From assembly GCF_038719015.1 (NCBI RefSeq), contig NZ_CP152276.1:1002001-1066000 (forward strand): a DNA stretch of 64,000 bases, in the 5' to 3' direction. Each line of letters opens with the position of its first letter. The stretch's first letter is position 1. Below the pieces are notes generated by a model, which had not been told where the DNA came from, did no database searches, and saw only the letters and a program-made list of their open reading frames with translations. The stretch is from Nguyenibacter vanlangensis (GTDB taxonomy: Bacteria; Pseudomonadota; Alphaproteobacteria; Acetobacterales; Acetobacteraceae). A program made the position numbers and the translations under genes. This document shows, piece after piece, positions 2,463 through 17,888 of this stretch.

Positions 2463-5303
2463 TTGACCGAAATTCCCGATCCGCCGGAGCCGCCGGCGCC
2501 TTCCGATCTGCTTCCGGTGACGATCGAGGAGGAGATGCGGTCCTCCTACCTCGCCTATGCGATGTCGGTCATCGTCAGCCGCGCCCTGCCCGACGTGCGC
2601 GACGGGCTGAAGCCCGTGCACCGGCGCATCCTCTATTCGATGCGCGAGAGCGGCTTCACCCACGACAAGCCCTACCGCAAATCGGCCCGCGCGGTCGGCG
2701 ACGTGATGGGTAAATACCACCCGCATGGCGATTCCTCGATCTACGACGCCATGGTGCGCATGGCGCAATCCTGGTCGATGCGCGTCAAGCTGATCGACGG
2801 TCAGGGCAATTTCGGCTCGGTCGACGGCGATTCCCCTGCGGCCATGCGCTATACCGAGGCCCGGCTGGCCAAGGCCGCGTCCTTCCTGCTGGACGACATC
2901 GACCGCGACACCGTCGATTTCCAGCCGAACTACGACGAAAGCGAGCAGGAGCCGAAGATCCTGCCCGCCGCCTTCCCCAACCTGCTGGTCAACGGCGCGT
3001 CCGGGATCGCGGTCGGCATGGCGACCAACATCCCGACCCATAATCCTGGCGAGATCATCGACGCGACCCTGGCGCTGATCGCCCGCCCGGACATGACCCT
3101 GGACGAGCTGATGCAGATCGTCCCCGGGCCGGATTTCCCCACCGGCGGCATCATCCTGGGCCGCGCGGGCATCCGCAGCGCGTTCGAGACCGGGCGCGGC
3201 TCGGTCATCATCCGCGCCCGCGCCGAAATCGAGGAGCTGCGCCGCGACCGCCGCGCCCTCGTGATCACCGAAATCCCGTACCAGGTTAACAAATCGACCC
3301 TGCAGGAACGCATCGCCGAACTGGTGCGCGCCAAGCAGATCGAAGGCATCTCCGACATCCGCGACGAAAGCGACCGGTCGGGCATGCGCATCGTCATCGA
3401 GATCAAGCGCGACGCGACGCCCGAAGTGGTGCTGAACCAGCTCTACCGCTTCACCCAGCTCCAGACCTCGTTCGGCGTCAACATGCTGGCGCTGGACAAC
3501 GGCCAGCCCCGCCTGATGGGGCTGAAGGACGTGCTGCACGCCTTTATCACGTTCCGCGAGGACGTGATCCTGCGCCGGGCGCGCTTCGACCTCAACAAGG
3601 CGCGCGACCGCGGCCACCTGCTGGTCGGCCTCGTGATCGCGGTGGCCAATATCGACGCGGTGATCGCGCTGATCCGCGCCGCCCCCGACGCCGCCACGGC
3701 GCGCGAGGCGCTGATGCGCACCGCGTGGGACGCCGCCGACGTCGCGCCGCTGCTCGACCTGATCCAGGATGAGGGCAACGTGATCGCCGACGGCAAGGTC
3801 CACCTGACCGAGGCCCAGGCCCGCGGCATCCTCGAACTGCGCCTGCAGCGCCTGACCGGGCTCGAGCGCGAGAAGATCCAGCAGGAACTGTCCGAGGTCG
3901 CGGTCCGGATCAACGAACTGCTCGAAATCATCGCCAGCCGCCCCCGGCGCATGGAGGTGATGTGCGCCGAACTGGCGGCGATCCGTGCCGAGCTTGCCTC
4001 GCCGCGCCTGACCGAGATCGCCGATTACGCGGGCGACCAGACCGACGAAAGCCTGATCGAGCCCGGCCAGATGGTGGTGACCATCACCCGCGACGGCTTC
4101 ATCAAGCGCACGCCGCTCGACATCTTCCGCGCCCAGAATCGCGGCGGGCGCGGCCGTACCGCCGCCGGGCGCCGCGGCGACGACATCGTGGTGCGCTCGT
4201 TCAACGCCCACACCCATCAATGGGTGCTGTTCTTCTCGTCCGGCGGCAAGGCGTATCGCGAGAAGGTCTGGCGCCTGCCCGAGGCCAGCCCCACCGCCAA
4301 GGGCCGCGCGCTGGTCAACCTGCTGCCCGACCTGGGCGGCGATTCGATCACCGCCGTCCTGCCCCTGCCGCAGGACGAGACGCTGTGGGAAAACCTGCAC
4401 CTGGTCTTCGCCACCGCGTCGGGCAATGTCCGCCGCAACCGGCTCAGCGATTTCCGCAATATCCGCGCCTCGGGCCTGATCGCGATGAAGCTGGACGAGG
4501 GCGACCGCCTGATCGGCGTCGCCACCTGCCGCGAAGGACAGGACGTGTTCCTGGCCACGCGCAACGCCCGCTGCATCCGCTTCCAGATCACCGACGACAC
4601 GCTGCGCGTCTTCGCCGGGCGCGACAGTTCCGGCGTGCGCGGCATCCGCCTGGCCGAGGGGGATGAGGTGAACAGCCTGTGCGTCCTCAACCATGTCGAG
4701 GCGACGGTCGAGGAACGCTCGGCCTTCCTGCGCATGGCCAATGCCCGCCGCCGGGCCGAAAACGCCGCCGCGGGCGACGAGGCCGAGGACGTCCCGCCCG
4801 ATGCGTCCGACGAGGAATCGGCCCCCGCCGATTCGGTCATCACGCCCGAGCGATTCGCCGAACTGGAACTGGCCGAGGAAATCCTGCTGACCGTCAGCAA
4901 CGCGGGCTTCGGGCGCCGCTCCTCGGCCTACGACTACCGGGTCAGCGGGCGCGGCGGGCTGGGCATCGCCAACATGACCTTCAGCAGCAGCCGGCGCGGC
5001 ACCGAAGTCGTGGCGACGCTGCCGGTGATCAACGGCACCGACGTCATGCTGGTGACCGACGCGGGCCGCCTGATCCGCCTGCCGGTCGGCCAGATCCGCG
5101 TCATGTCGCGCCAGGCCGGCGGCGTGACCCTGTTCCGTCTCGACACCACCGAGCGCGTCACCAGCGTCTTCCCCGTCATGGATGACGGCGAGGATGGAGG
5201 CGAGGATGACGCTGCCGAGGACGGGCTCCAGAACGGCGCCCCGGACGGCGCCCAGGACGGCGTCCAGGATGGCCAGGGCGCGGCGGAGGCACCCGATGCC
5301 TGA
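2463..5303 (+). CDS. gyrA: DNA gyrase subunit A
   Basis: 946-residue GyrA, the cleavage-religation subunit of DNA gyrase. The core begins [20 protein letters not shown]. The catalytic tyrosine is about residue 130, in [10 protein letters not shown]. The C-terminal beta-pinwheel carries a GyrA-box-like NRGGRGRT near residue 556. Two features lengthen it: an acidic insertion between pinwheel blades (about 760-800, rich in E, D and A) and a ~45-residue acidic tail with repeated [14 protein letters not shown] units. The start is the TTG at 2463: an in-frame stop lies at 2445-2447 and the next in-frame ATG is inside the conserved core. Its end overlaps coaD by 8 bases. Confidence 0.97.
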
Positions 5304-5805
5304 CGCCGCGCCGCGCACGGGATTCTATCCCGGCACGTTCGACCCGGTGACCAACGGCCACCTGGACATCATCGAACGTGCGGCGCGGCTGGTGGACCGG
5401 CTGATCGTCGGCGTGGGCGAAAATGCCGGCAAGCAGCCGCTGATGCCGGTCGACGAGCGCATCGCCTGCCTGCAGGCCGAAACCGCGCCGGTCGCACGCC
5501 GCGCCGGGATCGCGATCGGCGTGGTGGGCTTCGGCGGCCTGCTGGTCGACGCCGCGCGCGCCCATGGCGCGACCGTGATCGTGCGCGGCCTGCGCGGGGT
5601 CGCCGATTTCGATTACGAGGTCCAGATGTTCGGCATGAACCGCCAACTGGCTCCGGACATCGAGACGATGTTCCTGATGGCCGGCGAAGGCAGCCAATAT
5701 ATCTCCTCGCGGCTGGTGAAGGAGGTCGCCCGGCTGGGCGGCGACATCACCGGCTTCGTCCCCCCGTTCACCCGGCGGCGAATCCTCGCGCGCCTGGGCG
5801 GATGA
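5296..5805 (+). CDS. coaD: Phosphopantetheine adenylyltransferase
   Basis: 169-residue CoaD, which transfers AMP from ATP to 4'-phosphopantetheine in the fourth step of coenzyme A synthesis. It shows the nucleotidyltransferase start [19 protein letters not shown] with the T/HxGH-type signature, the block [20 protein letters not shown], and the C-terminal [22 protein letters not shown] chose the ATG at 5296 because it starts next to the conserved block; the frame is open further upstream but encodes only gyrA-shadow sequence. It overlaps the gyrA stop, so the two genes are probably translationally coupled. Confidence 0.96.
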
Positions 5806-6463: not shown

Positions 6464-6539
6464 GAGCCGGTAGCTCAGTCGGTAGAGCATTCGACTTTTA
6501 ATCGAATGGTCGTGGGTTCGAGTCCCACCCGGCTCACCA
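6464..6539 (+). tRNA. tRNA-Lys (anticodon TTT), CCA encoded
   Basis: 76 bases forming a full cloverleaf. The acceptor arm GAGCCGG pairs with CCGGCTC, followed by discriminator A and an encoded CCA. The D arm contains TAGCTCAGTCGGTAGAGC, the anticodon stem is TTCGA/TCGAA around loop CTTTTAA, and the T arm carries GTGGGTTCGAGTCCCAC. The anticodon TTT reads lysine codons. Confidence 0.97.
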
Positions 6540-6546
6540 CAGAGCC

Positions 6547-6820
6547 TCAGCCCGCGCGCTTCAGCGCATCGCGCAACGCATCGTTCAACCGGCTCCGCCA
6601 TCGGGGACCCGTGCCGCGCCAGCCATCCAGCACATCCTGGTCCAGGCGGAGGGAAACCAGCCGCCTTGGGATGGGACAGACGCGGGGGGCCTCTGCGGAC
6701 GACCCGCTCGCCCCGCCGGATCTCGGCCTGGTCGAAAAAGGCGTCGGTCAGTTCCGGCGCATCGTCCGGATCAACCCATTCGGGCCATTCGGGCGCGCCA
6801 GAGGGCTTCTTCACGGTCAT
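6547..6820 (-). pseudogene. BrnA-like antitoxin, frameshifted
   Basis: The start MTVKKPSG and EWVDPDDAPELTDAFFDQAE, then RRGERVVRRG, match the N-terminal half of BrnA antitoxins. The rest of the family pattern, LVSLRLDQDVLDGWRGTGPR followed by WRSRLNDALRDALKRAG and a stop at 6547-6549, is in another reading frame. The switch falls between about 6655 and 6700, near a run of six C. As sequenced, the first frame instead runs on through the tRNA gene. Either the gene is broken or the base run was mis-sequenced. It lies directly downstream of a similarly damaged BrnT fragment. Confidence 0.75.
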
Positions 6821-6951
6821 GCGCATGCCTCATCGAAATCATGCGCCGCGCCGAGCGGGGTCCAGACCATCACGACCGGGCGGCCACCGAGCATGCCGGC
6901 CGCGATGAACCGTTCCTCACCATAATCCTTCCGGCCATCCAGGACAGTCGC
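6771..6951 (-). pseudogene. BrnT-like toxin fragment (5' truncated and frameshifted)
   Basis: The segment ATVLDGRKDYGEERFIAAG then MLGGRPVVMVWTP is typical of the middle of BrnT ribonuclease toxins. The family C-terminus, ARRMISMRHAHDREEALW, follows in a +1 frame and stops at 6771-6773, overlapping the brnA start as in intact loci. The first ~35 residues of BrnT (with the W-D-x-x-K and N-x-x-KHG blocks) are missing: the open frame extends upstream to 7209 but with unrelated sequence. With two lesions, I judge this an inactive relic. Confidence 0.7.
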
Positions 6952-7319
6952 GGTCGTCGGCTGCGGCCGAACGTTCAACGGCTTGATCAACACCTTCTTG
7001 GCACAGATGCGCAAGCCGGACGGGCGCCGCGCACTGATGCGCTTCGACCGGACGGTGAACATCGCATCGCAGCCTTGTCGTAATGTAGCCCCGGCTTCGG
7101 GTATTCGAGGGCCCGAACGGCGCCGGGAAATCCACGATAGTCGATCGTTATATGTGGGCGTTATGCACGGGCACGGATTCCGGTCGTGAATCCCGGCACG
7201 ATCGCGCATTCCCTTGGCCCTGCTCCTGATGACCCGACGCGCGTTCTGCCGGCCGAATCGCTGTGCACGAGCGCTCTGGCCTGCTCCGCACCATCAAATC
7301 CCGGGACTAAACATTTAAT
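6952..7319. other. Region without a recognisable gene (toxin remnant flank)
   Basis: Open frames are present but none has a recognisable product. Part of it forms the non-homologous 5' extension of the BrnT frame. A 24-base sequence near its right end recurs at 49162-49185. Confidence 0.4.
7291..7314 (+). repeat. 24-bp dispersed repeat, copy 1
   Basis: The sequence containing CATCAAATCCCGGGACT is present again at 49162-49185 with a single mismatch (A versus G). Both copies lie beside toxin-antitoxin genes or relics. It may be the scar or end of a mobile element. Confidence 0.7.
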
Positions 7320-8735
7320 TTATTCTGTTCCTATCATTTTCCATCTCACCTTCTTGAGGTGAGCAGCGGGATCGTAAAGGGTTACATCCAAGGCGAGATC
7401 GCGAGCGGTGAGACGGCCAATGGCGGCGGCAAGGGCATAGGAATCCTGCACCGTGTTGGCGATGTTCTGGATCAGTGTCCGTTGCTGCTGGAACAGAAGT
7501 TGCTGCTGTTGCAGCACCTCGAACGTCGTGCGGACGCCCAGGAGTTCCTGTTGCTGGATGGCGCGGAATGCTGCTTCTCCCAACGAGACAGCCTCCCGGT
7601 TCCTGGCCAGTTGATCGCGATCCGCCTGCCATTTGCGCCAGGCGCTGTCCGCCGCTTGAATGGCCGTTCTCCGTTGGTCGTCCAGATCATGGCGGGCGGC
7701 ATCAACCGCGCGCCGGGCTGCGCGGATTGCGGCATATTCCGATCCGCCCTGATAGAGCGGAATACTGGCCTGAATCGTGGCCATCTCACCGTCTTCGGTG
7801 AATTTTGCCTCGTCCTGGTTGATCTGGCGCTGAAAAGACGCCTGAGCAGAAATCTGCGGCAGCAGGGCGGCAAAGGCGACCTTCACGGCATCCTGCCCGG
7901 CGGCGAGAGCGTATTGGGCACCGATGACCTGCGGGGCGTTGGTCACAGCAAGACGCGCGGCATCGGCCTCCTGCGCGACAGGCAGGACCAGGGGCTGGGG
8001 TGGTGCGAGGTCGCGTGGAGGTGAGCTGCCGACCTGACGCTGGAACGCAGCTTCGGCGACGCCGAGATCGCCTTCGGCCTGGCGGGTGGCGGCCCGTGCG
8101 GCCTCGTATTGCGAACGTGCCTGCAGAACGTCCGTCTGGGTGGCCTGATTGAGTTCGAACTGGCGTGTGGTCAGGCGTACCTGCCCGGCTAAGGTGTCTT
8201 CGTTGCGTTTTGTAAGGTCCAGAAGGCGGTGGGCCTGGGTCACGGACACATAGGCCGAGACGACGTTCTGGAAGACCTGCTGTTCGATCTGCACAAGGCG
8301 GGCACGTTCCTGCATGACCGTATGCATGGCCTGTCGGGTCGAGGCGACAGTCCGGCCGCCGGCGAATAGCGGCTGGGTGACGGTCACATCCGCGTTATAG
8401 CCGGGGGCAGCAAATTGCTGATCGTAACGGAATGATCCGCCAAATGGATAAGTGATATAGCTGGATTGATTGTAATTGGCGCTGGCGGCGACAGAAACAG
8501 TCGGTCGCCAGCCTGAAAGGGCCTTCGGAACGCCTTCGTCTGTCTGCTGGAGCAGCGCCCGTTCCTGCAGTAATTGAGGAGCAGAGTTATAGGCTGTGGC
8601 CAGGGCATCGTTGAGAGAATAGGTGTTCGGTCGCTCTTTTCCCTGACCGATTGACGGTACAAAAATGACTGCCAGAGCGGCCGTGACATAGAATCCAGAC
8701 CATTTCGGTCTTGTTGAAGTCTTGTTCCGTTTCAT
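7320..8735 (-). CDS. TolC-family outer-membrane channel of a type I secretion system
   Basis: 471 residues with a Sec signal peptide (about 1-32, hydrophobic WSGFYVTAALAVIFVPSIG). The mature protein has the paired coiled-coil repeats of the TolC/outer-membrane-efflux family: LNDALATAYNSAPQLLQERA near the N-terminus, and a duplicated arrangement with VTNAPQVIGAQYALAAGQDA in the second half. Trimers form the channel through which the adaptor and ABC exporter release their substrate. It is divergent from the CvaA-like adaptor gene, with a 92-base gap to the later start. Composition is less GC-rich than in the core genes, in line with the rest of this export/peptide island. Confidence 0.9.
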   Translation of the reverse strand: MKRNKTSTRPKWSGFYVTAALAVIFVPSIGQGKERPNTYSLNDALATAYNSAPQLLQERALLQQTDEGVPKALSGWRPTVSVAASANYNQSSYITYPFGGSFRYDQQFAAPGYNADVTVTQPLFAGGRTVASTRQAMHTVMQERARLVQIEQQVFQNVVSAYVSVTQAHRLLDLTKRNEDTLAGQVRLTTRQFELNQATQTDVLQARSQYEAARAATRQAEGDLGVAEAAFQRQVGSSPPRDLAPPQPLVLPVAQEADAARLAVTNAPQVIGAQYALAAGQDAVKVAFAALLPQISAQASFQRQINQDEAKFTEDGEMATIQASIPLYQGGSEYAAIRAARRAVDAARHDLDDQRRTAIQAADSAWRKWQADRDQLARNREAVSLGEAAFRAIQQQELLGVRTTFEVLQQQQLLFQQQRTLIQNIANTVQDSYALAAAIGRLTARDLALDVTLYDPAAHLKKVRWKMIGTE

Positions 8736-8827
8736 CGCTTACGTGCATTGCATGATTTTTCCGAACGTATCAATATGTGTCGAAATTATGTCAGTTCCCT
8801 TCTGACGGAGCATATCGACCGTGCATC

Positions 8828-10159
8828 ATGGCTGACGGATCGGCACGCCCCCTGTTTCGGGCGGAAGCCCTTAAATGGCATCAGGAAGCCTGGATCGGCT
8901 CGGCGCAACTCGTGGAGCCGATCTCCGGGCGCATCGCCTCACTGTGTTCTGTGGTGCTGGTCGCAACAGCGTGTTTCTATGTCGCGTTCGGGACCTATAC
9001 ACGGCGGATCCACGCCAATGGTCTGATGCTGCCGCCGACCGGACTGGTGGTCGCCGAGGCGGACCAGAGCGGTATTGTCGCATCAACTCCGGTCAAAGAG
9101 GGGATGCATGTCACAGCTGGAGACCGGCTGTTTACCCTGGATGTTGAAAGTTGGTCCGAAGCCGGGCCGACCGGACGACAATCGCTGGATGATCTGGCGG
9201 CTGAGAGGGATCTGTTGACGGCGAGACGCGCGTTGTTGAACGCGGATGCTCCGGTCGAACTGGAATCGTTTCGGGACGAACTGACGGCGCTGGAAAAGCA
9301 GCAGACCATGCTGACCGAACAGGTTGGGCGGGACAATGCGTCCTTGCCACTGGTGGAACGGGCGATGAGTGAGATGCGGACAGCGATCGGCACCCATCTG
9401 GTGACGGAAAGCCAGTTCCAGAGCCAGCTTTATACCTATGTGCAGTTCATGAATACGCACTCGCAGACCTTGCGCACGCTGGTCGAAACGGGCGGCCAGA
9501 TTTCTGACCTGCGCTACAAGATCGATCGGCACCGCTACAAGGTGGATGAAGATCTGAACGACCTCGATGTGCGTCTGGCCGATATCAAGCGCCAGATTGC
9601 CCAGGCACGGGGCCAGGCCGGAACGGTCATCGACGCCCGTGTCAGCGGGACGGTGGACGGTATCCGTGCGTCGGTCGGGCAGCGCGTCGCGGCCGGCCAG
9701 CCCCTGGCCAGCATTCTTCCCGACAATGCCGAATTGCTGGCCGAGCTGTACGTGGATAGTCGGGCGGTCGGTTTCGTGCGGCCTGGGCAGCATGTGCTGC
9801 TGAAATATGCGGCCTATCCGTTCCAGAGATTCGGTTTGTATGACGGTACCGTCGTTGAAGTGACGAAGGCGCCCCTGCCGGAGCGGAATGGGTTCGTTTC
9901 CAGGGACAATGGCGATAGTGAGGCCAACAGCGCCTCGCCACGGCCACAAGGCGATACCTATCGTATTCGGGTGCGACCGGATCGGTCCTATGTGTTGGCC
10001 TATGGCCAGCAGGAGCGGCTGACGCCGGGGATGGCGGTGGAGGCGGAGATCGCGATCGATCGCCGTCGTCTGTATCAGTGGCTGCTTGATCCGGTCATCT
10101 CGATGACATCGACGCTGAAGTCGGTTTCCGGTGGTCCCGTGTCCAGGACGATGCCGTAA
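8828..10159 (+). CDS. CvaA/HlyD-type membrane fusion protein
   Basis: 443-residue periplasmic adaptor that bridges the ABC exporter and the TolC-like channel. PLFRAEALKWHQE followed by one transmembrane helix (about residues 36-56, ASLCSVVLVATACFYVAFG) and GTYTRRIHANG is the CvaA pattern of colicin V-type exporters. It continues with a lipoyl-like half (GIVASTPVKEGMHVTAGDRL), a coiled coil (about 115-270), the second lipoyl half (SGTVDGIRASVGQRVAAGQP) and the C-terminal RRRLYQWLLDPV. An alternative GTG start at 8777 would add 17 residues; neither start has a clear ribosome binding site. It overlaps the ABC gene as TAATG. Confidence 0.9.
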   Translation: MADGSARPLFRAEALKWHQEAWIGSAQLVEPISGRIASLCSVVLVATACFYVAFGTYTRRIHANGLMLPPTGLVVAEADQSGIVASTPVKEGMHVTAGDRLFTLDVESWSEAGPTGRQSLDDLAAERDLLTARRALLNADAPVELESFRDELTALEKQQTMLTEQVGRDNASLPLVERAMSEMRTAIGTHLVTESQFQSQLYTYVQFMNTHSQTLRTLVETGGQISDLRYKIDRHRYKVDEDLNDLDVRLADIKRQIAQARGQAGTVIDARVSGTVDGIRASVGQRVAAGQPLASILPDNAELLAELYVDSRAVGFVRPGQHVLLKYAAYPFQRFGLYDGTVVEVTKAPLPERNGFVSRDNGDSEANSASPRPQGDTYRIRVRPDRSYVLAYGQQERLTPGMAVEAEIAIDRRRLYQWLLDPVISMTSTLKSVSGGPVSRTMP

Positions 10160-12258
10160 TGCTGCGGCCGATCCAGACCGGGTTTCGCCGAAAACTCCCC
10201 GTTATCCTGCAAACCGAGACAGCGGAATGCGGGTTGGCCTGCCTGGCGATGATCTTGTGTGCCCATGGGCATCTGATCGATCTGGCCTCCCTGCGTCGAC
10301 AGGCTGCGGTGTCTGGGTCCGGCCTCAACCTGCGGTCTCTGATGCGGATTGCCGACCGGTTCGGGTTGCATAGCCGGCCGGTCAAGCTCGATCTACCGGC
10401 GCTGGCGAAGCTATCTCTGCCTTGTGTCCTGCATTGGGATTTCAACCATTTCGTGGTGCTGGTGAAAGCCGGCGAGAAAGAGATCCTGATCCACGATCCG
10501 GCACGGGGCGCGCGCAGGCTGACGCTGGACGAAGCGTCGCGACATTTTACCGGTGTGGCCCTGGAATTGACTCCGGCAGCCGCATTCGAGAAGCGCGACG
10601 AACGCCGGCTGCTGAGCATCGGCGACATGTTCCGCCATATCGCGGGATTGAAGGGAGCGCTACTGGCCCTGGGTGGTCTTTCTCTGGGTCTGGAATTCAT
10701 TGCCCTGGCCAATCCCATGCTGGCGCAGGTGATCATCGACGAGGTACTGACGACGGGAGACCGTTCCCTGCTGTGGACGATCGCCGCCGGTCTGGTGCTT
10801 CTGGTGGTCTTGCAGGGGGTGATCGCGACCTTTCGTTCATGGATGGTCATGCTGCTGTCCACGCGAATCTCCGTGCAATGGAATGTCAGTCTGTTTTCCC
10901 ATCTGATGGGCTTGCCGCAGGACTATTTTGCGAAACGGGGGGCGGGTGACATTCTCTCGCGTTTTGCCAGCCTGGGGACGATCCAGCAGACCTTTACGAC
11001 CGACCTAGTGCAAAGCGTGATGGACGGTCTGATGGCGATCGGCATGTTCGTCATGATCGTGATCTATGGGAAATGGCTGACGGCGATTGTCGCTGTGTCT
11101 TCTCTGCTCGATCTGATGGTGCGGATCGTCCTGTTTGAACCCTATCGGGAAATGTCTGAAGAGGCGCTGATGCATGAAGCGGCCCAGCAGGGCCATTTCC
11201 TGGAAACTTTGCGCGGGATGCGCAGCATCAAGTTGCTGTCCCTGGAAGGACGACGGAAGATTGCCTGGGGAAACAGGCTGGTCGACAGCATCAATGCGGG
11301 GTTGAATATCCAGCGATACGATCTGATTTTCGCGCGGACACAGGAAGCTCTGTTCGGGCTTGATCGCGTACTGATGCTGGTTCTCGGTGCCCGGATGGTG
11401 ATCTCGGCCGAGATGTCGGTCGGGATGCTGGTGGCATTTCTGAGCTACCGGGATCAATTTGCAAGCCGCTTTGGGAGCCTAGTGACGGCCGGGTTCAAGA
11501 TCCGGAATTTGAAAGTGCAGTGTGACCGGCTTTCTGATATCGCTCTCGCCGAAGCTGAGGTGACCGATCAGGTTCAGGCTCCGCTGTCCGCTCCAGCGTT
11601 AGTCGACGTCAAGTCCGATGTGCCGGTCATCGAATGTCGAAATATCGGGTATCGGTATGGCAGGGAAGATTCCTGGGTGTTCCGAGGTGTCAATCTACAG
11701 GTGCCGGCCGGAAAAAGTCTGGCTATTACGGGGCCCTCCGGTTGCGGCAAGTCGACCTTGTTGGCGATCATGATGGGGTTGGTCCAGCCGGAAGAGGGGC
11801 AGGTGCTGTGGAATGGCGTCGAGCTTGGCCCTGCAAACCGGGAAGCATATCGATCGCAGATCGCCGGTGTGCTTCAGGACGATATTCTGTTATCGGGAAG
11901 TATCGCCGAAAACATTGCCGGCTTTGATGAAAACATGGATTGGGGTTGGATGATTGAATGTGCGAGTAACGCGCAGATCCTTGACGACATTCAGCGCATG
12001 CCCATGGGATTCGAAACTCTGATCAACGAAATGGGACATACTCTTTCAGGGGGACAACGGCAGCGCGTTATTTTGGCTAGAGCATTTTACCGTAAATCAC
12101 TGATTTTATTTCTTGATGAGGCAACGAGCAATTTGGATTTTGTTTCGGAACAATCTGTCGAAAATTTCCTTCAATTGACAAAAACCACACGAATTATAGT
12201 TACACATAGAAAAAATATCGCTGAAAACGCAAATAATATATTTCAAATGCTTAAATGA
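10159..12258 (+). CDS. Peptidase-containing ABC transporter (C39 family, CvaB-like)
   Basis: 699 residues. The N-terminal C39 protease domain has the oxyanion Gln18 and catalytic Cys24 (QTETAECGLACLAM), His97 (WDFNHFVVL) and Asp113 (IHDPARG), so it should cut leader peptides after a double glycine. A six-helix transmembrane domain (about 165-440) follows. The ATPase domain has Walker A GPSGCGKST at residue ~525, signature LSGGQRQRV at ~629 and Walker B LILFLDEATSNLD. It is coupled to the CvaA-like gene. The only double-glycine peptide I found nearby is the one at 14495-14662, the likely substrate. Base composition falls toward the AT-rich 3' end. Confidence 0.93.
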   Translation: MLRPIQTGFRRKLPVILQTETAECGLACLAMILCAHGHLIDLASLRRQAAVSGSGLNLRSLMRIADRFGLHSRPVKLDLPALAKLSLPCVLHWDFNHFVVLVKAGEKEILIHDPARGARRLTLDEASRHFTGVALELTPAAAFEKRDERRLLSIGDMFRHIAGLKGALLALGGLSLGLEFIALANPMLAQVIIDEVLTTGDRSLLWTIAAGLVLLVVLQGVIATFRSWMVMLLSTRISVQWNVSLFSHLMGLPQDYFAKRGAGDILSRFASLGTIQQTFTTDLVQSVMDGLMAIGMFVMIVIYGKWLTAIVAVSSLLDLMVRIVLFEPYREMSEEALMHEAAQQGHFLETLRGMRSIKLLSLEGRRKIAWGNRLVDSINAGLNIQRYDLIFARTQEALFGLDRVLMLVLGARMVISAEMSVGMLVAFLSYRDQFASRFGSLVTAGFKIRNLKVQCDRLSDIALAEAEVTDQVQAPLSAPALVDVKSDVPVIECRNIGYRYGREDSWVFRGVNLQVPAGKSLAITGPSGCGKSTLLAIMMGLVQPEEGQVLWNGVELGPANREAYRSQIAGVLQDDILLSGSIAENIAGFDENMDWGWMIECASNAQILDDIQRMPMGFETLINEMGHTLSGGQRQRVILARAFYRKSLILFLDEATSNLDFVSEQSVENFLQLTKTTRIIVTHRKNIAENANNIFQMLK

Positions 12259-12354
12259 TATTGCGACGAGAGAAAACGCTCCCGCCTTTATGGGTCGTCC
12301 ATTTCGCATGGAGCGCCTAAAAAACTCGTCGTAGCGAGAAGTTGGTATCGCTGC
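12259..12354. other. Convergent gap between exporter and peptide operon
   Basis: About 96 bases between two convergent genes. It contains short inverted repeats (GCGACGAG near 12263 with CTCGTCGT near 12325, and GGTATCGC near 12344 with GCGATGCC near 12362) that could form stem-loops and end transcription from either side. No T-run terminator is obvious. Confidence 0.35.
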
Positions 12355-13374
12355 CTATAAGGCGATGCCTTGGTATCGATAGGTAAGAAAATTTCTTATG
12401 GATCGTGCAACCAATGTTGTAAGTGAATTATTAAAATAACGGTCGAGCCATGCCCATTGCCCCCCCGGGTTTATCTCAAGAAAGACAGGATTTCCGCATT
12501 TATCGATGATAACGTCTACCACAGCCAAGTTTAAATTTAAACGCTCGCATAAAGACAGTAGGTTAATTTTTAATGATTCTGGTATTTCTGAAATCTCAAA
12601 AATTTCCTTGTTGAGTTGTTCAGTCCTCCAGTCAATTTTTGCCGTCTCTGAGTTCTGAGAATTCACCTTAATGGAGATTATTTCAGATAATATAATTAAA
12701 ATCCTCAGTTCGTACTTTTTATCGACGTAATTCTGCAATTGATTTGGGCAAGATTCTAAGTAAAATTTACCATTTTTAATGGCATCCTTCGATATTTCGG
12801 TCGTAAGAATTATGTTATTTGCATCATGCATAGGCTGCGAAAGAGTTTTGTAAACAACTCTACTGTCATAAAATAGGGAAAGTAAATCATCATTATTATT
12901 AGATATGATCGTTTTTGGTACGTGGAGTCCCATTTCTTTCGCAATAGTTAATTGTAATATTTTATTATCGGCAATTTTTTCTGCACTTGGATTGTTTAGC
13001 CAAACTGCGTTTGGCAAAAGCGCCGGCAAAGATTCAACAAAACGACACCACTCACGAAATCGAAAATGGTCATCAGGAGTAAGGTCTTTATCAAATGGAG
13101 GGGAAAGATGAAATGTTTTCACTCTCCAGAATACACAATCGATTTCAGAAAAGGAGAATGATACTCCATCGTCCGCAGTAAATCTTGGATCAATTCCATC
13201 TATGTTGGACCATCTGATATAGAAATTCTTCCTGTTTTTAGGCTCTAAATCCAGTATAAAAACATTGAATCCTTCCTTTTTTAAAAAAGAAGAAAGCTTC
13301 TCCACGTGCTCGTCAGGCAAAAGTCCTATTAATAAGCAGGTGAATGCCCGATTAGGTATATTTTTATCCTTCAC
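12355..13374 (-). CDS. ATP-grasp peptide ligase of the graspetide (MvdC/MvdD-like) type
   Basis: 339 residues. ATP-grasp enzymes of this group activate Asp/Glu side-chain carboxylates with ATP and join them to Thr/Ser (ester) or Lys (amide) side chains of a precursor peptide. Visible marks are VWLNNPSAEKIADNKILQL (125-142), the ATP-binding lysine region VVYKTLSQ (173-180), QNYVDKKYELRIL (214-226), and the closing metal/ATP motif VFLEINPGGQWAWLD (297-311), diagnostic of peptide maturases. The start is a GTG at 13374 with GGAG about 7 bases upstream; it overlaps the DUF6624 gene by 11 bases. Composition is strongly AT-rich compared with the genome, suggesting horizontal transfer. Confidence 0.85.
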   Translation of the reverse strand: MKDKNIPNRAFTCLLIGLLPDEHVEKLSSFLKKEGFNVFILDLEPKNRKNFYIRWSNIDGIDPRFTADDGVSFSFSEIDCVFWRVKTFHLSPPFDKDLTPDDHFRFREWCRFVESLPALLPNAVWLNNPSAEKIADNKILQLTIAKEMGLHVPKTIISNNNDDLLSLFYDSRVVYKTLSQPMHDANNIILTTEISKDAIKNGKFYLESCPNQLQNYVDKKYELRILIILSEIISIKVNSQNSETAKIDWRTEQLNKEIFEISEIPESLKINLLSLCERLNLNLAVVDVIIDKCGNPVFLEINPGGQWAWLDRYFNNSLTTLVARSIRNFLTYRYQGIAL

Positions 13375-14413
13375 ATTTTTCTCCGTATGCTTTTTTCAGC
13401 GATTCAGCATATAATCTTAATCTAATCAGGCCAAATCTCTTTCTCTCGTGATCAACGTTACTGGGTGTTTTTATAGGAAAAGGAACCCATTTTCCTGAGA
13501 TGCACTGGAATTGTGTCCCGAATGTTTGTTTCCCATGTAAATATAGGTCAATTCTGTCCTTAAATTCTGTATACTGTTGGCCCGTTAGTTTATTATTTTG
13601 ATACCATGTTAAAATATGGTTTGATGCAGATACTTGAAATGCCATATCAGACGTGACATGTTGTATAATCAAAAAAGCTGCTTGATTGACGTCACGAGGG
13701 CTTGTTGTGAAATATTTCCATCCCTTTTTTTCAATTATATGCTCAAATTGGGATATTCTTTCCGAGTCTTCTTCGGAAAGATAATTTCCAAGTGTATTCG
13801 TGACGATTTTTTGGACATCATTATCAAATTTATTCTTCATACCGTATTCAATATACGTATCTCTATCAACCTGATCTTCCTCTGCCAAAAGCTTTATAAG
13901 ATCGTCATCCTGCAGGGTAATTGTTTTTTGTCGGTTATGCATTTCTTTTACTGCAAATAAAATAGCATTCAGTTGATCATCAGCTACTGTCAATACTTTT
14001 GAAAGATCGGAATAAGACCGAAATAAATTCACGTTTTTGACAAAAAATAAAACGCTCCTACATATACCATTTTGGTACGGCGCAAGAACTAGATGAGAAA
14101 ATTCTATTTTCAAATCATTTAATTTATTCTCTTGATTTTTTTTATCCTGCACTTGACAATCATTTAAATATTTTTTTATTTCTCCCCATTGTTGTTTTTC
14201 TTCAGCAGTGGCATCTGCGAAGGCGCCACGTGCCCATTGGTAATGGTTTGGGTTAAAATGGGAGTTTTTAATATATTTTTTGAGTATAGGTGGAGGATTT
14301 ATTTCCGATGAATAGCAGAGTTTAGGATATAATAAATAAAATATTAAAATATAAGATGATACATCGCGAAAGCTCATAACCATCCTATCGTGTGTGGTCA
14401 AAAAATCTTTCAT
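13364..14413 (-). CDS. DUF6624 domain protein in the peptide operon
   Basis: 349 residues from the ATG at 14413. The C-terminal half matches the DUF6624 pattern: LLAEEDQVDRDTY, AAFLIIQHVTSDMAFQ, GKQTFGTQFQ and GKWVPFPIKTPSNVDHERK. The N-terminus carries a hydrophobic stretch (SSYILIFYLLYPKLCYSSE) that looks like a signal peptide or anchor, so the protein may act in the envelope. Other starts are possible: an ATG at 14377 has AGG 6-8 bases upstream and gives a cleaner signal peptide, while TTG at 14449 gives a longer form. The middle (about 60-180) is unassigned. Its place between precursor and ligase suggests a role in maturation, export or immunity (inference). Very AT-rich. Confidence 0.75.
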   Translation of the reverse strand: MKDFLTTHDRMVMSFRDVSSYILIFYLLYPKLCYSSEINPPPILKKYIKNSHFNPNHYQWARGAFADATAEEKQQWGEIKKYLNDCQVQDKKNQENKLNDLKIEFSHLVLAPYQNGICRSVLFFVKNVNLFRSYSDLSKVLTVADDQLNAILFAVKEMHNRQKTITLQDDDLIKLLAEEDQVDRDTYIEYGMKNKFDNDVQKIVTNTLGNYLSEEDSERISQFEHIIEKKGWKYFTTSPRDVNQAAFLIIQHVTSDMAFQVSASNHILTWYQNNKLTGQQYTEFKDRIDLYLHGKQTFGTQFQCISGKWVPFPIKTPSNVDHERKRFGLIRLRLYAESLKKAYGEKCEG

Positions 14414-14494
14414 TTGTTTGGAAGAAAAACACGAAGACACGTTATACAACGATATCTTCGTGGCAGCATGAAAGACTGATTTAGAAAAAATATA

Positions 14495-14662
14495 TTAAGG
14501 GTTTGTGTCGAATTTATTATTTTGATTGGGAGTTACAATAATAGTACTCCCATTGTCTCCGCCCCCGGACACTTGACTGATCTCGTCGGCACTAAGGATC
14601 TCTTTGACAGGGCGAGCAAGCTTTGATCCAAAGCTTGTGCTGACAGTCGACGTTTCTTTCAT
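14495..14662 (-). CDS. Double-glycine precursor peptide (candidate graspetide-like RiPP)
   Basis: 55 residues, ATG at 14662 to TAA at 14495-14497, with GGAAAG about 10 bases upstream of the start. The leader begins MKETSTVSTSFGSKLARPV and ends KEILSADEISQVSGG, a textbook double-glycine leader for C39 peptidases. The core after Gly34 starts GDNGSTIIVTPNQ and ends NNKFDTNP (21 residues). It holds acceptor and donor side chains usable by an ATP-grasp ligase: Asp36, Asp52, Ser39, Thr40, Thr44, Lys50, Thr53. It is the first gene of the minus-strand operon with DUF6624 and the ligase. Ring pattern and exact cleavage site are not visible from sequence. Confidence 0.85.
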   Translation of the reverse strand: MKETSTVSTSFGSKLARPVKEILSADEISQVSGGGDNGSTIIVTPNQNNKFDTNP

Positions 14663-14797
14663 GATTACATGTCTTTCCGATAAGAGGAAGTGAACATAGA
14701 GATTTGAGTATCTTCAGATCATTGTGGCAAATTAATAATATTAAAAATTTTTTTATATTACGCAACCTATTAAGTGTTCAGTCTCGGAACCAAACAC
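14663..14797 (-). promoter_or_regulatory. AT-rich promoter region of the peptide operon
   Basis: About 135 bases between the precursor start and the IS1380-type element, very AT-rich around 14730-14765. The operon promoter should lie here or read out of the IS element. I could not pick one -35/-10 pair with confidence. Confidence 0.4.
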
Positions 14798-16399
14798 CTA
14801 GCCCGGATTATGCGTGAGGGTTGGCGGGTATGGGCGTAACGCCTTGATCTGTCCTAGGATTTTGGTATCGACGCCAAAACCCACCTGCTCTGGACCGCGC
14901 CATGCTCGCCGCTGAGCCTATCGCTTTTCTACCCGGCCTGTCACCGGTCTGCGGCAAGCCGATCGAGGCCCGTTTCGACGAAGCCCTGATGTCCTCGGAC
15001 GGCGGCTTGCTGGCACTGCGGGAGATCGAGCAGCGTCTCGGCATTGCCCGGCGCCTGGCGGCCTGCATTGACGATCCGCGGGCGCCGGAACGCGTCGTGC
15101 ATTCGCTCGACGGGATCATGCGTTTTCGTATGCTGATGATCGCCGCGGGTTATAAGGACGGCAACGACGCTGACAGCCTGCGCACCGATCCCATGTTCAA
15201 GCTGGCGATGGACCGGCTGCCGGAGCACCGGGATCTCTGTTCGCAATCCACCGTATCGCGCACCGAAAATCTGCCGGACCGCCGCATGCTTCTCCGTATG
15301 GGCCATGCGATGGTTGAGCACTACTGCCACAGCTTCCGGCAGACGCCGCGCCGCATCGTACTCGATATCGACGATACCTTCGACGCCGTTCACGGAGACC
15401 AGCAGCTTCGTCTCTTCAACGCCCACTACGACGCTTATGGCTTCCAGCCGATTGTGGTGTTCGACGGCGAGGGCCGCATGGTTGCCGCGGTGCTGCGTCC
15501 CGCCTGTCGGCCGAAGGGGTCACAGATCGTCAAATGGCTGCGCCGGCTGATCCGCGCCATGCGTACCCATTGGCCCCGCGTCGAGATCCTCCTGCGCGCC
15601 GACAGCCACTACTGCACACCCGAGGTGCTGCGTTTCTGCCGTGCCGAGGCGCTGGACTATGTTCTCGGTGTCGCTTCCACCACGACGCTGCGCAAGCATG
15701 TCACAGCCCTGGAGGCCAGCGTGGCGGGCCGCGCCCATGGCGGCAGTGGAAAGCTGCGCCGGTTCAAGGAATTCCATGACGCCGCCGCAAGCTGGGATCG
15801 CGTCGAGCGCATCGTCGCACGCGTCGAAGCCGGACCTCAGGGCGTCGACACGCGGTTCATCGTCACCAGCATCAAGGGGGTCCGCGGACGCGTCGTCTAC
15901 CAGAACCTCTACTGGTGCCCGCGGTCAGGCCGAAAACCACATCAAGGCATGGAAGACGCACCTGGCGGCCGATCGCACATCGTGCTGCCGCGCCGCCGCC
16001 AACCAGATGCGCCTGTTCCTTCACATCGGTGCCTACTGGCTGATGTGGGCCTTGAGGGCCGCCATGCCACGCCGTTCATCGTGGCGAACGGCCCAGTTCG
16101 ACACCTTGTGCCTGCGTCTGATCAAGCTCGCCGTCAGGGTCGTCGTGCAGAAACGCAAAGTCCGCCTGCATCTGCCGCGCGCCACGCCGGATCAGGCCAT
16201 CTTCTCCTGCGCGCTCATGCGGCTGCCCGGAATGATCGTCTGATCCACGGGGCTCATGCCCCGTCTCCGCCCCGCATCCCGCCAACCCAAACGCCGAACA
16301 CCGCCGCGACCGTCAAACCCTCTCAAAAGGAGCGCGCCCTTGCGCCTGCAGCCTCGACACGCGCTCAATATGCCAACCCTCATGCATTATCCGGGCTAG
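14798..16399 (+). mobile_element. IS1380-family insertion sequence (1602 bp)
   Basis: Terminal inverted repeats are clear: the left end reads CTAGCCCGGATTATGCGTGA and the right end, on the other strand, CTAGCCCGGATAATGCATGA, both continuing GGGTTGGC, i.e. 28 bases with two mismatches. The single transposase gene inside matches IS1380-type DDE enzymes. No exact target duplication is visible (left flank ...ACAC, right flank TCAC...), perhaps through later mutation. The element lies 135 bases upstream of the precursor-peptide gene. Confidence 0.9.
14902..16243 (+). pseudogene. IS1380-family transposase, frameshifted
   Basis: The reading frame from ATG 14902 (FDEALMSSDGGLLALREIEQ, VLDIDDTFDAVHGDQQLRLF, LLRADSHYCTPEVLRFCR) is intact to about 15914. 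There an extra G in TACTGGTGCC shifts the frame. Removing one base gives NLYCARGQAENHIKAWKTHL and then the normal C-terminus through FLHIGAYWLMWALRAAMPRR to a stop at 16243. The first two catalytic acidic residues lie before the break and the essential C-terminal part after it. This copy is therefore probably inactive unless recoding occurs. Confidence 0.85.
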
Positions 16400-16744
16400 T
16401 CACTTAAAACTGAAATGGGCTTCATTATATTCTTCTCTTGTTGCAAGGATGGGAGCGGAAAGATGTAGCAAAGCTCCATGCACCGACTGTCCACGCCGAT
16501 GTGATTACGTCCCAACCTCGATCGGTAAACCCTAGAATCTTCGACATGCTTTGCTCCTTATGCAAATGGATGGATGGCAGGCAGCCGTCTCCTTATGTTG
16601 GATGATAATCGACAGCACGGCATAATCGCACGTAATCCCCGCCGCCACTATCGTCGGCGTAGCGTGCCGCCACAGTTCAGATTGGGACCGTGCCGAGGCA
16701 CTTAGAATCCGTCCAAGATCATTATCTGCGATTACAGAGTTTCT
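16400..16744. other. No recognisable gene between the two IS relics
   Basis: The right flank of the IS1380-type element, leading into the decayed end of an IS5-like transposase frame. The open frame here continues the transposase fragment without further family similarity. Confidence 0.4.
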
Positions 16745-17050
16745 GCCCCTCAAGCGAACTAGCGCATTGTAATCAAGACACTCCCAATCCTTGCTCAGGC
16801 GTCGGCAGCGGTTCAGCCAGGCGATGAAGCGCTCCACAATCCATCGGTTGGGCAGGACTATGAATTGGCCGGCGTCACTGCGCCACACGATCCCGACGTT
16901 CACGGAGCGGCAGACCCTGGCCAGCCCTTTGTGGAACTTTTCCCCTTGATAGCCGGCATCGGCATAGAGTTTCAGCTAGAATGGATAAAGGCCGAACAGG
17001 ATCGCCATCGGCACGACGCCGCCATCGCGGTCCTGGATGGGCGTGGCCCG
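16745..17050 (-). pseudogene. IS5-family transposase remnant (C-terminal part)
   Basis: The minus strand reads QDRDGGVVPMAILFGLYPF, a TAG stop at 16976-16978, LKLYADAGYQGEKFHKGLAR and then FIVLPNRWIVERFIAWLNRC with RRLSKDWECLDYNALV. This is the C-terminal DDE part of IS5-type transposases, with the YADAGYQG and WxVER-F-WLNR motifs. The N-terminal half is absent, an in-frame stop interrupts it and the far C-terminus has decayed, so it is a dead fragment. Confidence 0.8.
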
Positions 17051-17084
17051 CCATTCCCCACGTCCCGATCGGCAGGCGTCAGCC

Positions 17085-17888
17085 CTATTCCTCGTAGGTC
17101 GTCACGGAAAATTCCGCCAGCCCGGCCGGCCCGAAGGACGTGCTCAACGCAACGTCGGTCGCATCCCGGCCCCGCGCCATGACGATCCGCCCGATCCGCG
17201 GCCGGTTGTGCCGCGCGTCGAACGTGTACCACTGGCCGTCCAGCCAGACCTCGAACCAGGCCGAGAAATCCATCGGGTCGGGCACCGGCGGCACGCCGAT
17301 ATCACCCAGATAGCCCGTGCAATAGCGCGCCGGAATGTTCATGCAGCGGCACAGCGCCACCGCCAGGTGGGCGAAGTCGCGGCACACTCCCACCCGCTCG
17401 CGATAGGCTTCATGGGCCGAACGCGTGGGCCGCGCCTGGCCGTAATCGAAGCGGATATGGTCGTGGACGAAGGCGGTGATCGCCTGCACCCTGCCCCAAC
17501 CCGGCGCCAGATGGCCGAACAGCGACCACGCGATGGGCGACAGCAGGTCGGTCTCGCAATACCGGCTGCCCAGCAGAAAGACCAGGCAATCGGACGGCAA
17601 ATCCTGCACCGGCACCTCGCGCGCCGTCGGCATCTGCCGGTCCGGCAGGCCGCTGTCGGCAATCACGAAGGACATGCTGGTCCGGAACAGCCCCGCCGGG
17701 GCCAGCACCCGCGTGCAGCGATTGCCGAACCCGTCCAGATAGCGCTGGCTGGGTACCGGCGGGTCGAAACACGGGATCTGCGGCGTCATCAGATCGGGCT
17801 CGCGGTCCGGATGGACCTCCAGCATCAGCACGATCGGCGTCGGGGACGACAGCAGCAGCGCGATGTCATAACCGGCTCGGATCAGCAT
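17085..17888 (-). CDS. Transglutaminase-like superfamily protein
   Basis: 267 residues: an N-terminal beta-domain (LMLEVHPDREPDLMTP, about 20-110) followed by a transglutaminase/protease-like core. The nucleophile is Cys169 in RERVGVCRDFAHLAVAL. The usual HAW block appears as FSAWFEVWLDGQWYTFDARH, so the histidine position is Ser209 while Asp224 is kept. I believe this S-for-H change is common in this bacterial subfamily, so its chemistry may differ from true transglutaminases. No signal peptide is clear. It stands alone beside IS debris, with a short repeat tract upstream. Confidence 0.85.
   Translation of the reverse strand: MLIRAGYDIALLLSSPTPIVLMLEVHPDREPDLMTPQIPCFDPPVPSQRYLDGFGNRCTRVLAPAGLFRTSMSFVIADSGLPDRQMPTAREVPVQDLPSDCLVFLLGSRYCETDLLSPIAWSLFGHLAPGWGRVQAITAFVHDHIRFDYGQARPTRSAHEAYRERVGVCRDFAHLAVALCRCMNIPARYCTGYLGDIGVPPVPDPMDFSAWFEVWLDGQWYTFDARHNRPRIGRIVMARGRDATDVALSTSFGPAGLAEFSVTTYEE

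What the first reader, a model, noticed from the sequence alone, without database searches (positions are those of the whole stretch)
7320..14662. Complete candidate graspetide-like RiPP cluster with dedicated C39 export machinery
One contiguous island holds a double-glycine precursor, an ATP-grasp peptide ligase with the EINPGGQW motif, a DUF6624 protein, a peptidase-containing ABC exporter with an intact Cys-His-Asp site, a CvaA-type adaptor and a TolC-like channel. ATP-grasp chemistry, C39 cleavage after GG and tripartite export are established for these families. The combination in an acetic acid bacterium, with this precursor, is one I do not recognise. The convergent layout of exporter and biosynthesis genes suggests an assembled cassette.
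Basis: partly seen in the sequence, partly recalled or inferred. Interest (0 to 1): 0.92.

Follow-up and report, generated by a model that had tools for sequence, protein, structure and literature searches.

The report
Graspetide cargo on borrowed bacteriocin exporter
A recently acquired DNA island in an acetic acid bacterium carries genes that very likely make a small ring-closed peptide and ship it out through an exporter that related bacteria use for plainer bacteriocin-like peptides.

Summary
Observation confirmed: all six genes stand where stated; the precursor is the only ORF in 64 kb with a strict double-glycine leader (0 in 10 shuffles). Ligase + DUF6624 + peptidase exporter is not new as a combination: Carter 2026 (PMC13097080, section read) reports DUF6624 in graspetide groups 18, 20, 23, 42 and NHLM exporters in 18, 20, 23. 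Added here: (1) the cluster lies in a strain-level island at tRNA-Lys (window ~6540-17080), absent from a ~99% identical conspecific. (2) The exporter clade is common in the order (63 of 299 genomes) and elsewhere sits beside GG peptides without a ligase: 30 of 40 places have one by a relaxed pattern, 0 of 40 have ATP-grasp or DUF6624. (3) A second such cargo, convergent on an ABC fragment of this clade, lies on a probably circular 52-kb contig with a MobA/MobL relaxase in another genus. (4) DUF6624 proteins mostly have hydrophobic, signal-like N-termini (16 of 19; control ligases 2 of 64), so DUF6624 probably acts in the periplasm, not in ring formation. New variant of a known kind; chemistry, activity and DUF6624 function untested.

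The parts
6464..6539 (+). tRNA-Lys(TTT), left boundary of the island; homology to 10 of 13 other genomes of the genus ends at or within 3 bp of its 3' end
6540..17080 (.). variable island between tRNA-Lys and a transglutaminase-like gene; in congeners 23, 103, 103, about 600 or about 2100 bp stand here; window 6665-16833 is absent from the conspecific genome G690
7320..8735 (-). TolC-family outer membrane channel
   Evidence: TIGR01844 252.9 bits over cut-off; inside the 86% nt identical block in congener G010
8777..10159 (+). HlyD-type periplasmic adaptor
   Evidence: PF13437, PF16576; inside the 86% nt block shared with G010
10159..12258 (+). C39 peptidase-containing ABC exporter; Cys24-His97-Asp113, Walker A and signature present
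   Evidence: PF03412, PF00664, PF00005; motifs; nearest solved structures are entries named ABC-type bacteriocin transporter, such as 8vp3 and 4ry2
12355..13374 (-). ATP-grasp graspetide-synthetase-like ligase
   Evidence: TIGR04185 150 bits, below cut-off 425; solved-structure hits 5ig8, 7mgv (CdnC), 5ig9, 7m4s (AMdnB)
13364..14449 (-). DUF6624 protein, probably secreted to the periplasm; start uncertain; overlaps the ligase gene by 11 bp
   Evidence: PF20329 53.4 bits; hydrophobic N-terminus at the place of signal-like segments in aligned homologues
14495..14662 (-). 55-aa precursor: 34-aa leader ending in SGG, 21-residue core GDNGSTIIVTPNQNNKFDTNP
   Evidence: GGAAAG upstream of the ATG; whole-length similarity to the G499 precursor (48 of 5000 shuffles reach the score)
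14902..16407 (+). IS1380-family transposase next to the cargo
   Evidence: NF033539 270.9 bits

Best explanation
A graspetide cargo module (precursor, ATP-grasp ligase, probably secreted DUF6624 protein) has been joined tail-to-tail to a TolC-HlyD-C39 exporter of a clade that in related bacteria sits beside double-glycine peptides without a ligase. Likely working: the composite leader is read twice; its first ~19 residues bring the ligase, which closes one or at most two side-chain ester or amide rings in the core (acceptors Asp36/Asp52, donors Ser/Thr/Lys); its last ~15 residues, the size of the whole leader of most other cargo peptides tabulated, bring the C39 domain, which cuts after Gly33-Gly34 during export through HlyD and TolC. 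DUF6624 goes by the Sec route to the periplasm and acts there, most likely as self-protection or a post-export step. Shown here: gene content, family membership, island, exporter clade and its other cargo, second cargo. Inferred: ring formation, dual leader reading, cleavage, DUF6624 place and role, biological activity.
For: Ligase nearest to graspetide synthetases by profile and solved structures; intact C39 and ligase motifs. The precursor is the only strict GG-leader ORF in 64 kb, 0 in 10 shuffles. Second occurrence in another genus: an ABC 3' fragment of the same clade with DUF6624-like, ligase and GG precursor genes converging on it. Exporter clade: 63 of 299 genomes; among 40 fetched places 30 have a GG peptide by a relaxed pattern (2 of 40 shuffled flanks), 0 have ligase or DUF6624. 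Of seven other cargo leaders tabulated five have 15 residues, the others 18 and 25; the two graspetide leaders have 34 and 30. Hydrophobic N-terminus (12-residue mean hydropathy 1.7 or more within the first 60): 16 of 19 DUF6624-type proteins, 2 of 64 ligases as control. Low-GC cargo: 38-43% in four stretches of three other loci, 34-45% in the window.
Against: No experiment. The core has only two Asp and no Glu, poor for a multi-ring graspetide; the core similarity of the two precursors is not significant (1308 of 5000 shuffles). A relaxed GG pattern is reached by chance in shuffled windows. The signal of the window's own DUF6624 is weak: 1.82 against 1.72 for the window's own ligase, and 1.42 against a control maximum of 1.73 with a 16-residue span. 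The tree groups the two ligases only weakly (86/69, long branch). The G499 DUF6624-like protein is not hit by PF20329, rests on hhalign E 5e-6 at 86% and hmmsearch E 3.8e-5, and a whole-genome search with A3 did not ring there. In G499 the neighbouring ABC copy is broken and the intact exporter lies about 9 kb away if the contig is a circle. DUF6624 also occurs far from any such ligase.
Confidence: 0.7

Rival explanations
1. DUF6624 is a cytosolic partner or tailoring enzyme that the ligase needs, as MirC is for rosaritide; the cluster is then an ordinary partner-dependent graspetide cluster.
For: DUF6624 and ligase genes overlap by 11 bp, suggesting coupled expression; [quoted passage not shown] invariant His264, Asp298, Arg299, Gln308, Gly311, Gln313 could be catalytic; 3 of 19 DUF6624-type proteins (L064, L065, L067) lack a hydrophobic N-terminus and the window's own is only modest.
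Against: Hydrophobic N-terminus in 16 of 19 DUF6624-type proteins against 2 of 64 ligases, at the same aligned place in the window protein; DUF6624 genes without such a ligase nearby.
Confidence: 0.3
2. The cargo and the exporter are neighbours by chance: the island simply collects mobile genes, the ligase modifies a peptide exported otherwise, or the cluster is a relic.
For: The island is a mosaic with an IS1380 element and a BrnT-toxin-like ORF; cargo and exporter differ in GC; the other ligase loci of the order have no intact C39 exporter in the stretches looked at.
Against: The precursor carries a C39-type leader; the same convergent arrangement occurs in another genus; all six window genes are open; low-GC cargo beside this exporter was seen in all three other loci measured.
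Confidence: 0.15
3. The ATP-grasp enzyme does not make rings but adds or links something else (RimK-like tailing, or a linear modification), so the product is not a graspetide.
For: Bit scores lie far below the graspetide equivalog cut-offs; only two acidic residues in the core; weak RimK-family scores too.
Against: MvdC-type profiles far outscore RimK (150 against 20.6 bits) and the four best solved-structure hits are annotated ATP grasp ligase, CdnC and AMdnB.
Confidence: 0.13

Closest known systems
Graspetide groups 18, 20, 23 (and 42) of Carter et al. 2026 (PMC13097080; abstract, section 7 and passages read)
   Same: Ligase with DUF6624 at high frequency; NHLM-type exporters in groups 18, 20, 23
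   Different: Group assignment could not be tested (network data are in the supplement); the host family, the exporter clade otherwise seen beside ligase-free GG peptides, and the TolC-HlyD set are the specific features here
Microviridin-type synthetases MvdC/MvdD and CdnC (NCBIfam and structure names from the calls; MdnB/MdnC for 5ig9/5ig8 recalled)
   Same: ATP-grasp family and active-site motif
   Different: Far below equivalog cut-offs; precursor lacks the acceptor-rich core recalled for microviridins
Class II microcin exporters such as that of microcin V (titles and starts of abstracts of PMC10231218 and PMC9746304 seen)
   Same: C39 ABC + HlyD + TolC and short double-glycine leaders (recalled for microcin V)
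   Different: Here the cargo is encoded with a modifying ligase; its leaders are 30-34 rather than mostly 15 residues
Cluster 23 family of Makarova et al. 2022 (PMC8939145; abstract, section 6 part 1, section 7 and passages read)
   Same: Graspetide-associated, predicted secreted, conserved His and Arg
   Different: Identity with DUF6624 is not established; their alignment is in a supplement I could not read

Membership tests
Graspetide RiPP | ATP-grasp ligase of the graspetide-synthetase clade | tested here: met
   Best profiles TIGR04185, 04187, 04184, 04192 (150-105 bits, all below their curated cut-offs) and graspetide-synthetase structures; met by homology only
Graspetide RiPP | Precursor with leader and a core holding hydroxyl/amine donors and acidic acceptors | tested here: inconclusive
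   Leader clear; core has Ser/Thr/Lys donors but only Asp36 and Asp52 as acceptors; core not significantly similar to the G499 core
Graspetide RiPP | Side-chain ester or amide macrocycle (-18 Da per ring) | not testable with these tools
   needs mass spectrometry
Graspetide groups 18/20/23/42 | Ligase falls in that similarity-network group | not testable with these tools
   group sequences are in a supplement not available here; only the co-occurrence statement was read
Peptidase-containing ABC exporter (C39) | C39 domain with Cys-His-Asp, ABC membrane and ATPase domains | tested here: met
NHLM bacteriocin exporter TIGR03796 | score over the curated cut-off 853.3 bits | tested here: not met
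   456.6 bits
DUF6624 (PF20329) | score over the gathering cut-off | tested here: met
   window protein 53.4 against 27 bits; the G499 counterpart gave no Pfam match and is called only DUF6624-like
Tripartite type I secretion | ABC + HlyD adaptor + TolC channel encoded together | tested here: met
   the same trio in G010 (ABC cut by the contig end); a TolC hit beside the exporter in 9 of 40 other places

The most novel reading that the evidence does not exclude
Acetic acid bacteria own an exporter platform whose low-GC cargo block is exchanged between strains and plasmids and can switch chemistry, from ligase-free bacteriocin-like peptides with mostly 15-residue leaders to a ligase-modified graspetide with a composite leader; the graspetide cargo brings its own periplasmic self-protection or post-export factor, DUF6624, in place of the small membrane proteins that stand beside some of the other peptides.
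Probability: 0.3. Interest if true: 0.65.

Novelty: new variant of a known kind. Interest (0 to 1): 0.48.

Why it matters
DUF6624 is a frequent but unexplained companion of graspetide synthetases and was suggested to be a biosynthetic enzyme (PMC13097080). Signal-like N-termini point to the periplasm and give a direct test (localisation; ligase activity without it). The loci also offer a natural experiment on how one C39 exporter clade comes to serve peptides with and without a modifying ligase, and a pair of precursors in which ligase recognition and export recognition may be separable within one leader.

Tried and rejected

DUF6624 homologues in the protein database: only the window's own protein with a single sequence and one more with an alignment; that search needs shared 5-residue words. 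Viral-contig scans with P0066 and an L067 protein found no relative.

Plasmid DNA like the cargo or the IS: no match.

A recombination point inside the ABC gene: similarity to four relatives ends at window 12128-12139 and the last 127 bp are 28% GC, but the protein tails remain alignable by eye with a conserved His-Arg, so I do not claim one.

Core homology of the two precursors: rejected as unproven (1308 of 5000 shuffles).

Equating DUF6624 with Makarova's cluster 23: left open.

GG patterns: a stricter pattern flagged only 7 of the 40 exporter places; I relaxed it after seeing known leaders missed, giving 30 of 40. Only the ATP-grasp ligase and DUF6624 were searched for beside the 40 exporters, so 'without a ligase' does not exclude other modifying enzymes.

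Rows set aside or left out: G005's ATP-grasp hit (82 residues, E 7e-4, three stops) counts in the tallies of 3 of 60 and 8 of 299 but not as a real locus. Of the class matches to profile A1 (73 of 385) six have E <= 1.2e-25, own included; many of the rest are short weak hits. The conspecific G690 was not in the ligase searches. Of the exporter matches I fetched 40 places besides G010, G005, the G499 fragment and the window; the rest were not looked at, and some of the 40 stretches are cut by contig ends. Of the seven non-own DUF6624 genomes of the class search I fetched six (not G154). L065 was left out of the hydropathy table and added. Two of the three candidates of L265 look spurious.

In-print searches: DUF6624 (one paper), graspetide + DUF6624, graspetide + C39 + genome mining, graspetide + aminomalonic acid, graspetide + immunity protein (none), acetic-acid-bacteria terms, graspetide + bacteriocin terms. 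A find for 'microviridin' in the Acetobacteraceae metabolite survey PMC8776678 gave 0 (passages only).
Full report
OBSERVATION. The ligase scores 150 bits on the MvdC model, well under the curated 425, and its best solved-structure matches are 5ig8, 7mgv (CdnC), 5ig9 and 7m4s (AMdnB): a divergent graspetide-synthetase relative. Its best matches in the protein database, itself apart, are two proteins at 34% identity. The exporter has a complete C39 site (Cys24, His97, Asp113) and resembles solved ABC-type bacteriocin transporters. The 55-aa precursor is the only ORF in the window with a strict GG-leader pattern, none in 10 shuffled windows; with a relaxed pattern it is again the only one, but shuffled windows then give 0-2. 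GGAAAG stands upstream of its start.

AN ISLAND. In 10 of the 13 other genomes of the genus homology from the coaD side ends at or within 3 bp of the 3' end of tRNA-Lys (window 6539; two end inside the tRNA and the conspecific at 6664). In five of six congener stretches compared, homology resumes at 17077-17089, with 23, 103, 103, about 600 and about 2100 bp between; the sixth (G004) showed no right flank in its 19.9 kb. The same-species genome G690 is 98.6-99.4% identical on both sides, in one contig (one 112-bp piece 95.5%), but lacks window 6665-16833 and has about 1.3 kb there without a match to window 1-40000. The ligase rings in none of the 12 other congeners searched except a weak, stop-bearing 82-residue hit in G005 (3 of 60 genomes with a match, own included; 8 of 299, own included); G690 was not in those two searches.

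COMPOSITION. Core genes 67-71% GC, TolC and HlyD 60-61%, the ABC gene 59% falling to 45% at its end, ligase and DUF6624 34-36%, precursor 45%. Cargo beside this exporter in three other loci is also low in GC (38-43%, four stretches).

THE EXPORTER CLADE AND ITS USUAL CARGO. Congener G010 has TolC, HlyD and most of the C39-ABC gene at 86% nucleotide identity in another place; a second G010 contig, not proven contiguous, carries an ABC end followed by a 109-aa GG peptide and a small membrane protein. Congener G005 has a C39-ABC copy lacking its N-terminus, followed by an 88-aa GG peptide and an aspartyl-protease-like protein. In the order, 63 of 299 genomes have a match at E <= 1e-90. Of 40 places fetched, 30 have a GG-leader peptide within 4.5 kb by a relaxed pattern (2 of 40 shuffled flanks; a stricter pattern flagged 7 of 40), and none has an ATP-grasp or DUF6624 in the fetched stretch. 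Named examples on plasmids are Gluconobacter thailandicus NZ_CP043044 and Kozakia baliensis NZ_CP014685, with glycine-rich GG peptides. So the exporter is not dedicated to graspetides as a clade. Other modifying enzymes were not searched for at these places.

A SECOND GRASPETIDE CARGO. Genome G499, another genus of the family, has on contig C23 an ABC 3' fragment of this clade (71.5% nt to the window), and converging on it a 199-aa DUF6624-like gene, a ligase and a 55-aa GG precursor (L100). The order inside the cargo differs (precursor-ligase-DUF6624 against precursor-DUF6624-ligase). The same contig holds an intact TolC-HlyD-C39 set, ABC 81% identical to the window's, a MobA/MobL relaxase, two more GG-type peptides, one next to an Rce1-like protein, and identical 249-bp ends, hence probably a circular plasmid of about 52 kb. 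The 199-aa protein is not found by PF20329 but matches the DUF6624 alignment by hhalign (E 5e-6, 86%) and is the only one of 7378 ORFs from 63 ligase loci to ring in hmmsearch at E <= 0.01 (E 3.8e-5); a whole-genome search of 12 ligase genomes, G499 included, did not ring and had no positive control. The ligase tree joins window and G499 only weakly. The two precursors are alike over the whole length (48 of 5000 shuffles reach the score) but not in the core alone (1308 of 5000).

LEADER. Seven other cargo leaders tabulated have 15 residues in five cases, 18 and 25 in the others; the graspetide leaders have 34 and 30. I infer an added N-terminal segment for the ligase before a C39-type end.

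DUF6624. In the class it occurs in 8 of 385 genomes, in the order in 14 of 299, 11 of these in one genus, own included in both. None of the 14 fetched order neighbourhoods (13 genomes) and none of the six fetched class neighbourhoods has a ligase of this kind. Among the 14 order genomes only G000 also has a ligase match. Sixteen of 19 DUF6624-type proteins have a 12-residue stretch of mean hydropathy 1.7 or more within the first 60 residues, against 2 of 64 ligases, one of which is the window's own ligase at 1.72. The window protein is modest (1.82; 1.42 with a 16-residue span), but its stretch lies where aligned homologues have signal-like segments. This is a hydropathy measure, not a signal-peptide predictor, and most of the homologues come from one genus. 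Invariant in 18 aligned proteins: Arg196, Trp244, His264, Asp298, Arg299, Gln308, Gly311, Gln313, Arg336. The fold stayed unresolved.

LITERATURE. Carter 2026 (PMC13097080; abstract, section 7 and passages read) reports DUF6624 at high frequency in graspetide groups 18, 20, 23, 42 and NHLM exporters in groups 2, 8, 14, 16, 18, 20, 21, 23. The full-text search for DUF6624 returned only that paper. Makarova 2022 (PMC8939145; abstract, part 1 of section 6, section 7 and passages) describes a graspetide-linked family of predicted extracellular enzymes (cluster 23); whether it is DUF6624 I could not test.

MECHANISM AND VERDICT. Best reading: a graspetide cargo on an exporter of a clade otherwise found beside GG peptides without a ligase, with at most two rings (two Asp acceptors) and a probably periplasmic DUF6624 of protective or post-export role. 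Ring formation, cleavage, localisation and activity are inference. New variant of a known kind; interest moderate.

Noticed in passing
L197 (NZ_CP009874.1, Klebsiella pneumoniae plasmid pKPN-b9c), locus 4863-5408: A DUF6624 gene stands between dfrA1 and aadA1 downstream of intI1, apparently as an integron cassette, which suggests a function that stands alone.
   Followed up: no
L193, L194, L095:12335-13381: Retropepsin-like or aspartyl-protease-like proteins recur beside this exporter clade with GG peptides in Gluconobacter, Kozakia and congener G005; the Pfam scores of the two scanned are just under the cut-offs.
   Followed up: partly
L154 (conspecific G690), reverse-complement positions about 1332-2500: At the same tRNA-Lys site the conspecific has two ORFs that look like a PIN-type toxin and its antitoxin, and a relaxase-like remnant (by eye, not family-tested).
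   Followed up: no
window 6817-7209: BrnT-toxin-like ORF at the left end of the island, 24.6 bits, under the Pfam cut-off of 34.5.
   Followed up: no
L099:5392-5562, G611 of the same family: A different graspetide-like precursor (core after AGG rich in Thr, Asp and Glu) upstream of a ligase 28% identical to the window's, beside an ABC half-transporter without C39.
   Followed up: partly
L056:2050-2451 and L104:1724-2275: Ligase loci with long precursor-like ORFs that repeat a DPD-containing motif about three times each.
   Followed up: no
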